Shown in pieces: positions 34,873-36,174 of a stretch of DNA of 36,174 bases (positions are counted from its first letter, which is position 1; every line of letters begins with the position of its first letter). The notes under the pieces are model-generated. The model searched no databases. It had not been told where the DNA came from and saw nothing but the letters and a program-made list of their open reading frames with translations. The DNA lies in contig CAIMVM010000330.1 of assembly GCA_903844895.1 (NCBI GenBank), forward strand, positions 73,255 through 109,428, in the 5' to 3' direction. Position numbers and translations under genes: made by a program. The stretch comes from an uncultured Pseudomonadota bacterium (GTDB taxonomy: Bacteria; Bdellovibrionota_B; Oligoflexia; Oligoflexales; CAIMVM01).

Positions 34873-34896
34873 TAGAAAGTGTCTGGAGGATTGGTC

Positions 34897-35688
34897 ATGC
34901 GCCAAACAGCTATTCTATTTTTCATATTGCCTTTTGCCAGCCTAAGCTGCAACGACAAGCAGGTTCATGGGATTGTTTCCAGCGAACCGATGACTAACTA
35001 TATTCGAGTGATTCAGGGCAAAGACACGGTGCTTTTTGAAAAGGTTTCTTCGGAAAAAGATTCAATTTACTCTGAAAACTATCTCGATCGTAGATGTAAT
35101 CTCTACTCCGGGATGACCTTGAATTTGAATATGCCTCCCGTTCCCACAAAAGATGGCTACCTAAAAGTAGACTTTTCGTTTCCGGTTCCCGGTTGTGAGA
35201 TCGCAAGTGGCTATGTGTTAGAGTCAGATGTGGAATCGTCTTTTTCCAAGGTAGAAACCATGTCAAAAAATGAAAAAGCTTTTCTCTCAACGATTGCTTA
35301 CGCTGAGGGCACGGGAGACGCCTACAACTATATATTTTCCCATGCGAGTTTTAGTTCCTATGAGGATCATCCCCGCCAGAGAAAGTGCTCCAATGGTCTT
35401 TGCTCTAATGCAGCAGGTAGATACCAATTTTTAGCAGGAACATGGGACCCATTGGCAAGAAAAGCCGGCGTTAAGGATTTCACTCCTGCGAGCCAAGACA
35501 CGGTTTGCCTAGCACTGATCAAAGAAGTAGATGCTACCCAAGATGTGATTGCTTCGAATCAATATGCGTCTTTTGAAAGAGCTATATACTCTCTTTCTGG
35601 AAAATGGGCGTCGCTGCCGGGAGCGCCCTATGGGCAACCCACTAAATCCATGTCAGACCTTTGGCGATTCTATCAAAGCCAGTTGTGA
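34897..35688 (+). CDS. Lambda-endolysin-like (GH104) lipoprotein
   Basis: A 263-residue exported peptidoglycan-cleaving enzyme, probably a lytic transglycosylase. Signal: MRQTAILFFILPFASLSC, a plausible lipobox. Residues about 125-260 follow phage lambda endolysin closely: FLSTIAYAEGTGD (catalytic Glu137), SSYEDHPR, NAAGRYQFLAGTWD, KDFTPASQDTVCLALIKEVDA, SGKWASLPGAPYGQP. Before it lies a domain of about 100 residues with Cys pairs that I do not recognise. Cell-wall remodelling is the likely role. GGAGG stands 7 bases before the ATG at 34897; an upstream in-frame start at 34879 is less likely. Its stop codon is immediately followed by remains of a group II intron protein. Confidence 0.88.
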   Translation: MRQTAILFFILPFASLSCNDKQVHGIVSSEPMTNYIRVIQGKDTVLFEKVSSEKDSIYSENYLDRRCNLYSGMTLNLNMPPVPTKDGYLKVDFSFPVPGCEIASGYVLESDVESSFSKVETMSKNEKAFLSTIAYAEGTGDAYNYIFSHASFSSYEDHPRQRKCSNGLCSNAAGRYQFLAGTWDPLARKAGVKDFTPASQDTVCLALIKEVDATQDVIASNQYASFERAIYSLSGKWASLPGAPYGQPTKSMSDLWRFYQSQL

Positions 35689-35884
35689 GCTTATGGTGTC
35701 CAATAATCAACGAGGCGTCTCGAGGTATATATTCGCGGCTACACGTATCTTCTTCAAATGGCTAAAAAAACGCGGTGGAAGAAAGCTCTTGGACTGGGAC
35801 AAATTCAACCTCTTCATGAAGCTCTACCCTCCGCCCAAGGCTATCATTCATCACAAACTCTTCATGTTACATACAAGCAAATGA
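35689..35884 (+). pseudogene. ltrA: Group II intron-encoded protein, C-terminal remnant
   Basis: Only the last 60 or so residues remain. After AYGV in one frame, the sequence shifts frame to SNNQRGVSRYIFAATRIFFKWLKKRGGRKLLDWDKFNLFMKLYPPPKAIIHHKLF, here described in parts: SRYIFAATRIFFKWLKKR matches the end of the maturase domain, and WDKFNLFMKLYPPPKAIIHH the DNA-binding region of intron reverse transcriptases (pattern RYxFxxxRxxFKWLNRRS...PLPKPxIxH). The reverse-transcriptase core is missing. The remnant starts right at the stop codon of the endolysin-like gene and ends 9 bases before domain V. It is a clear relic. Confidence 0.8.
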
Positions 35885-35975
35885 TTTGATCAGGAGCCCG
35901 TTGCCTTAGTAGGGCACGACGGGTTCTCACTGGGGGGGGGCGGCTAGGCAACTAGCGTATCTACCACCTCCCAGG
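35885..35975 (+). ncRNA. Group II intron domains V and VI (3' end)
   Basis: Domain V is at 35894-35926: GAGCCCGTT pairs with GACGGGTTC (including the G-U that marks the catalytic triad GAGC/GTTC), a two-base AC bulge, and an inner stem GCC/GGC closed by a TTAGTA loop; 33 nt against the usual 34. Domain VI follows at 35932-35972: nine G pair with CCACCTCCC, inner stem GCTAG-GCAA-CTAGC, with an unpaired GTATCTA holding a possible branch A. The 3' splice site should be near 35973-35976. The 5' part of the intron is not present immediately upstream, so it cannot splice as a normal intron. Confidence 0.78.
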
Positions 35976-36174
35976 GAGATGACGGCTCTGGCTATTTGGA
36001 GCTTTTCCAAGAAGCCAACCGGCATCGATGAAGTGGGAAATGAACAGCAGCTGCGGCCTTGCAATGCCGCATGTTCTAGCCGGTGGGAATCCGGTCTGCG
36101 TAACTGCTAACCACAGGCGCAGTATCTAGCCTTGCAGAAGTGGAGGTAACTCCATTTTTGATGCGTAGGTAAGA
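35976..36174 (+). ncRNA. Hairpin-rich RNA-like segment, possible group II intron domain I-type sequence
   Basis: Beyond the presumed intron end the sequence is densely foldable: GGCT-TTGGA/TCCAA-AGCC (35989-36016), GCGGC/GCCGC (36053-36070), CCGG-TGGGAAT-CCGG (36080-36094), CTGCG/CGCAG (36096-36123) and TGGAG-GTAA-CTCCA (36140-36153) with a GNRA loop. No reading frame is evident. This looks like structured RNA and may be the front part of another group II intron extending past the window, but this is inference. Confidence 0.4.

What the first reader, a model, noticed from the sequence alone, without database searches (positions are those of the whole stretch)
35976..36174. Structured RNA directly after the intron 3' end: tandem intron or circularly permuted arrangement
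Domains V-VI are followed within about 15 bases by a run of short hairpins including GNRA tetraloops, reminiscent of group II domain I. Order V-VI then I-like is expected for two introns in tandem, or for the circularly permuted group II introns reported in bacteria that produce RNA circles. If the second, the short stretch between would be the circularised segment.
Basis: inference. Interest (0 to 1): 0.6.

Follow-up and report, generated by a model that had tools for sequence, protein, structure and literature searches.

The report
Two group II introns flanking tnpB end
The contig ends in a pile-up of mobile elements: the broken tail of one self-splicing intron, then the last 81 bases of a transposon's tnpB gene, then the start of a second, unrelated intron; it is a nested-insertion scar, not a rearranged ribozyme that makes RNA circles.

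Summary
The order 'domain V-VI, then domain I' is real, but the anatomy differs from the one proposed. 35695-35969 is the 5'-truncated 3' end of group II intron 'A': C-terminus of its reverse transcriptase/maturase, a variant D5, and D6 ending at the 3' splice site. 35970-36050 is not domain I. It is a near-terminal 81-nt piece of an IS607-type tnpB gene, where the omega RNA is expected to overlap; the genome holds about 34 whole or partial copies of this transposon end. 36051-36174 is the start of a different intron 'B' (Rfam RF02005 D1 match, 50.7 bits), cut off by the contig end. B's 5' end recurs at exactly the same tnpB position in contig C138, and C12 shows an intron 3' end joined to the other half of that site. 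Intron A relatives repeatedly sit 19 nt further along in the same transposon end. So these are insertions of two intron lineages into a transposon, followed by truncation. A circularly permuted ribozyme is not supported: D5/D6 and D1 come from different introns, maturase coding sequence precedes D5, and the linker is transposon sequence. The modest novelty is a repeated group II intron landing site in tnpB/omega RNA.

The parts
35695..35969 (+). Intron A remnant: 5'-truncated 3' end of a group II intron
   Evidence: 81-93% identical to seven other copies in the genome, homology of all ending at 35970
35696..35884 (+). C-terminal ~62 codons of intron A's reverse transcriptase/maturase, stop at 35882-35884
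   Evidence: Translation matches the C-terminus of the 444-aa maturase P0001 of the intact copy in C67; P0001 hits RVT_1 and TIGR04416
35894..35926 (+). Domain V of intron A, variant with a non-GNRA tip loop
   Evidence: Covarying stem over 14 relatives; not detected by RF00029
35932..35969 (+). Domain VI of intron A; proposed branch A at 35963, 3' splice site 35969/35970
   Evidence: Covariation; shared 3' boundary and C as next base in the other copies; splice site position inferred
35970..36050 (+). 3' part of IS607-type tnpB (in frame PREMTALAIWSFSKKPTGIDEVGNEQQ), presumed 5' part of the overlapping omega RNA
   Evidence: About 34 genomic matches; in-frame end of the complete TnpB in C101, next to an IS607 serine transposase
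36051..36174 (+). 5' start of intron B (domain I, cut by the contig end); exact first base uncertain by 1 nt
   Evidence: RF02005 at 36086-36174; identical 93-nt junction region in C138 and a 107-nt fragment in C7

Best explanation
The region is a stack of mobile-element insertions. (1) An IS607-type transposon end (3' end of tnpB overlapping its guide RNA) was present. (2) Intron B inserted, most likely by retrohoming, after nt 81 of this stretch, a site used more than once in this genome; the missing part of B and of the transposon end would lie beyond the contig end. (3) Intron A inserted at nt 1 of this stretch, just upstream, and later lost everything 5' of its last ~62 maturase codons, together with the rest of tnpB. 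Shown: the identity of each block, the block boundaries, the recurrence of the B site and of intron A in the same transposon end. Inferred: the order of events, that A arrived by reverse splicing rather than by a deletion ending there, and that B is complete and able to splice. The truncated A cannot splice by itself.
For: Intron A family of eight copies with a common 3' boundary and covarying D5/D6. The 81-nt block is the in-frame tnpB tail of a complete IS607 element in C101 and recurs about 34 times. Intron B's start sits at the same tnpB position in C138 in a diverged tnpB copy. C12 shows a canonical D5/D6 followed by tnpB nt 81-119. Intron A sits at tnpB nt 100 in C144 and, seen from the 3' side, in C153, C81, C82 and C89.
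Against: The contig ends inside intron B, so its D2-D6 are unseen and the C12 3' end cannot be proved to be B's. The 5' exon of the window's intron A is lost, so its target pairing cannot be tested. The join of A to tnpB nt 1 is seen only once; a deletion ending there by microhomology (CTC/CCC) is possible, and C241 shows another odd join near the same point.
Confidence: 0.88

Rival explanations
1. A natural circularly permuted group II ribozyme: D5-D6, an 81-nt linker, then D1-D4, which would back-splice and release an 81-nt RNA circle.
For: Domain order D5-D6-linker-D1 and a linker under 100 nt match the published class (PMC8637638); the linker can form a stem.
Against: D5/D6 and D1 belong to different lineages: A's own D1 is known and has no significant similarity to the downstream D1. 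Maturase coding sequence precedes D5. The linker is a tnpB tail found mostly away from introns. In C138 intron B starts at the same site with no D5/D6 directly before it.
Confidence: 0.02
2. An assembly artefact: the contig end wrongly joins pieces of repeated elements.
For: The window ends at the contig end inside a repeated element; many contigs of this 372-contig genome end in or near introns.
Against: The tnpB/B junction recurs in C138 in a different tnpB copy. The A/tnpB join falls exactly at the intron's 3' boundary, which a random mis-join would not favour. The D6/tnpB join itself is unique, so this is not fully excluded.
Confidence: 0.06
3. A functional tandem in which intron A is complete elsewhere in the transcript and both introns splice in series.
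For: Both pieces are on the same strand and tandem or nested introns do occur in this genome.
Against: Homology to intron A stops at 35695, right after an unrelated gene (34879-35688); D1-D4 and most of the maturase are absent.
Confidence: 0.03

Closest known systems
Group II introns that insert at fixed sites in other mobile elements, including twintrons (Thermosynechococcus elongatus, PMC2882425)
   Same: Several intron lineages in one genome, repeated insertion at a conserved site in an insertion sequence or another intron; nesting
   Different: Here the recurrent target is the 3' end of IS607 tnpB with its presumed guide RNA, and the upstream intron is a truncated remnant
IStrons: group I introns fused to IS200/IS605 or IS607 transposons (PMC4227781)
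   Same: Self-splicing intron joined to a tnpB-carrying transposon of the same IS607 kind
   Different: Group II, not group I; the intron lies inside the transposon end and no joint mobility is shown
Natural circularly permuted group II ribozymes (PMC8637638)
   Same: Linear order D5-D6, short linker, D1
   Different: Two unrelated introns, maturase sequence before D5, linker is transposon sequence

Membership tests
Circularly permuted group II ribozyme | D5 and D6 lie 5' of D1 with a short linker | tested here: met
   D5/D6 35894-35969, linker 81 nt, D1 from 36051
Circularly permuted group II ribozyme | D5/D6 and D1-D4 form one ribozyme | tested here: not met
   D5/D6 is lineage A; its cognate D1 in L039/L040 is unlike the downstream D1
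Circularly permuted group II ribozyme | No maturase reading frame in or near it | tested here: not met
   Maturase C-terminus ends 9 nt before D5; criterion from PMC8637638
Circularly permuted group II ribozyme | D2-D4 downstream of D1 and then an end without D5/D6 | not testable with these tools
   Contig ends at 36174
Group II intron (block 35695-35969) | D5 and D6 with covariation, maturase, D1 in intact copies | tested here: met
Group II intron (block 36051-36174) | D1 model match | tested here: met
   RF02005 50.7 bits, above cut-off
Group II intron (block 36051-36174) | GUGYG 5' end | tested here: inconclusive
   Junction reads GCAGCUGCGGCC; start is GCUGCGG or CUGCGG
IS607 tnpB 3' end | In-frame with a complete TnpB next to an IS607 transposase in another copy | tested here: met
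   C101: NF040570 and NF033518 above cut-off
TnpB omega RNA | Conserved structured RNA overlapping the tnpB end, followed by a variable guide | tested here: inconclusive
   Conserved to GTTTCATGTAGCGG and then variable sequence; stem with some double changes but weak covariation energy; no Rfam match
TnpB omega RNA | Transcribed and bound by TnpB | not testable with these tools
   Needs RNA data

The most novel reading that the evidence does not exclude
Two group II intron lineages have specialised on the guide-RNA end of an IS607 tnpB transposon, using its hairpins as landing sites and splicing out so that tnpB and the guide RNA stay usable: a group II counterpart of the group I IStrons.
Probability: 0.15. 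Interest if true: 0.55.

Novelty: new member of a known kind. Interest (0 to 1): 0.27.

Why it matters
It removes a tempting but wrong case from the small list of natural circularly permuted introns, and shows how nested insertions can mimic one. It also records a genome in which group II introns repeatedly land at two sites in the 3' end of IS607 tnpB, a possible point of conflict or cooperation between self-splicing introns and RNA-guided nucleases that can be tested directly.

Tried and rejected
Extension to the right: impossible, contig end. Domain I reading of 35976-36050: rejected, it is the tnpB tail. An attC or terminator reading of the 81-nt repeat: dropped once the upstream TnpB was seen. 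Finding a complete intron B in relatives, in the phylum or in plasmids: no match outside this genome. Finding lineage A elsewhere: five relatives at 57-63% maturase identity, none seen next to tnpB; L118 and L119 lie by hairpins, judged by eye. Target pairing of lineage A: a perfect 7-nt EBS1/IBS1 match in C67 (CGATAAT/ATTATCG) but only 4 of 7 in C144. Rfam identity for the transposon RNA: none.

Full report
Where it lies. The window is the last 36,174 bases of a 109,428-base contig (C330) of a 4.23-Mb, 372-contig genome, and the window end is the contig end. Nothing to the right can be read, so the finding was worked out from other copies of its pieces in the same genome.

Block 1, intron A remnant (35695-35969). 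This stretch is 81-93% identical to seven other places in the genome, whose homology ends together at about window 35970. It encodes the C-terminus of a group II maturase. A complete copy in C67 encodes 444 aa with RVT_1 and TIGR04416 at E = 2.4e-86, just under that model's curated cut-off. C67 and C144 also carry the cognate D1 (RF02005, 112 and 100 bits). D5 and D6 are supported by covariation over 14 relatives, including named genomes from several bacterial phyla: 11 of 26 pairs have changes on both sides. The D5 lacks a GNRA tip loop and is missed by Rfam's D5 model. Placing the branch adenosine seven bases before the end puts the 3' splice site at 35969/35970, and the next base is then C, as in the other copies in this genome.

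Block 2, tnpB tail (35970-36050). This is not domain I. It is found in about 34 places in the genome (69-100% identity), mostly away from any intron. Upstream of several copies lies the C-terminus of TnpB. In C101 the stretch is the in-frame end of a complete 407-aa TnpB (...GPARSESKPREMTALDLWRLSIGSTSIDELGNEQQASMSKFA*), adjacent to an IS607 serine transposase. That RNA role is inferred: the consensus stem has five pairs with double changes but little covariation energy, and Rfam has no match.

Block 3, intron B (36051-36174). The first 124 nt of a second group II intron follow, with an RF02005 match (50.7 bits) and a GUAA loop at 36146-36149. C138 carries the same intron start, identical over 93 nt, at the same position of another, diverged tnpB tail. 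C12 shows the complementary half: canonical D5/D6 ending ...GTTACTCACG, then tnpB nt 81-119. The positions fit one insertion site, GAACAGCA(G)|GGCTTGCC, though the C12 intron cannot be proved to be B. The first bases (GCUGCGG or CUGCGG) are not a clean GUGYG.

Recurrent targeting. Intron A sits after tnpB nt 100 in C144 (5' side) and is followed by the end of the same element (GTTTCATGTAGCGG) in C153, C81, C82 and C89 (3' sides). So the same transposon end is a repeated landing place for two intron lineages. The genome is rich in such nesting: in C243 another intron lies inside the 3' end of a lineage A copy, and C211 and C243 show D6-D6 tandems. Fourteen maturase matches and 16 D5 matches were counted. 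Only one complete tnpB was found, so the host transposon is mostly decayed.

Circular permutation tested. The published class has D5-D6-linker-D1-D2-D3-D4, without maturase reading frames in or near it (PMC8637638). Here the order and linker length fit, but the D5/D6 belongs to lineage A, whose own D1 shares no significant similarity with the downstream D1; the maturase frame runs almost up to D5; and the linker is tnpB. In C138 intron B begins at the same site with no D5/D6 directly before it. The resemblance is best explained as coincidence.

What remains open. The order of insertions, whether A reached its site by reverse splicing or by a deletion ending there, whether B is complete, and whether splicing keeps tnpB or its guide RNA functional. 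Group II introns at fixed sites in other mobile elements are known (PMC2882425); IStrons join group I introns to the same kinds of transposon (PMC4227781). A search of the held library found no report of group II introns inside tnpB/omega RNA, but the library lacks most subscription papers, including the 2024 Science paper on transposon introns and guide RNAs.

Noticed in passing
window 35894-35926; L118, L120, L121, L122, L093, L094, L095: Lineage A has a D5 with a UUAAU/UUAGU-type tip instead of a GNRA loop (consensus GAGCCYRUUGCCUUARUWGGGCACGAYGGGUUC). Its D1 matches Rfam strongly but its D5 does not match RF00029 even at E 0.05, so Rfam-based surveys will miss these 3' ends.
   Followed up: partly
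L003 (C243:2719-2793): A canonical intron 3' end is followed by CCACCTCATAGGTTTCATGTAGCGG, the last bases of intron A plus the transposon end: an intron nested in the 3' end of another intron that itself sits in the transposon.
   Followed up: partly
L009 (C243:798-873), L011 (C211:10772-10888), L060 (C111:25500-25930): D6-D6 tandems and two intron 5' starts in a row: several intron lineages nest in one another in this genome.
   Followed up: no
L065/L048 (C241:352-504): The same transposon end joined in inverted orientation to a lineage A D6 across CCCAGTGAGA, close to where the window's A/tnpB join lies; a trace of the same join is in C311.
   Followed up: partly
L090 (C138:88-230), L089 (C341:11121-11161): Short palindromes made of two inverted copies of the transposon's right end, like miniature elements.
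   Followed up: no
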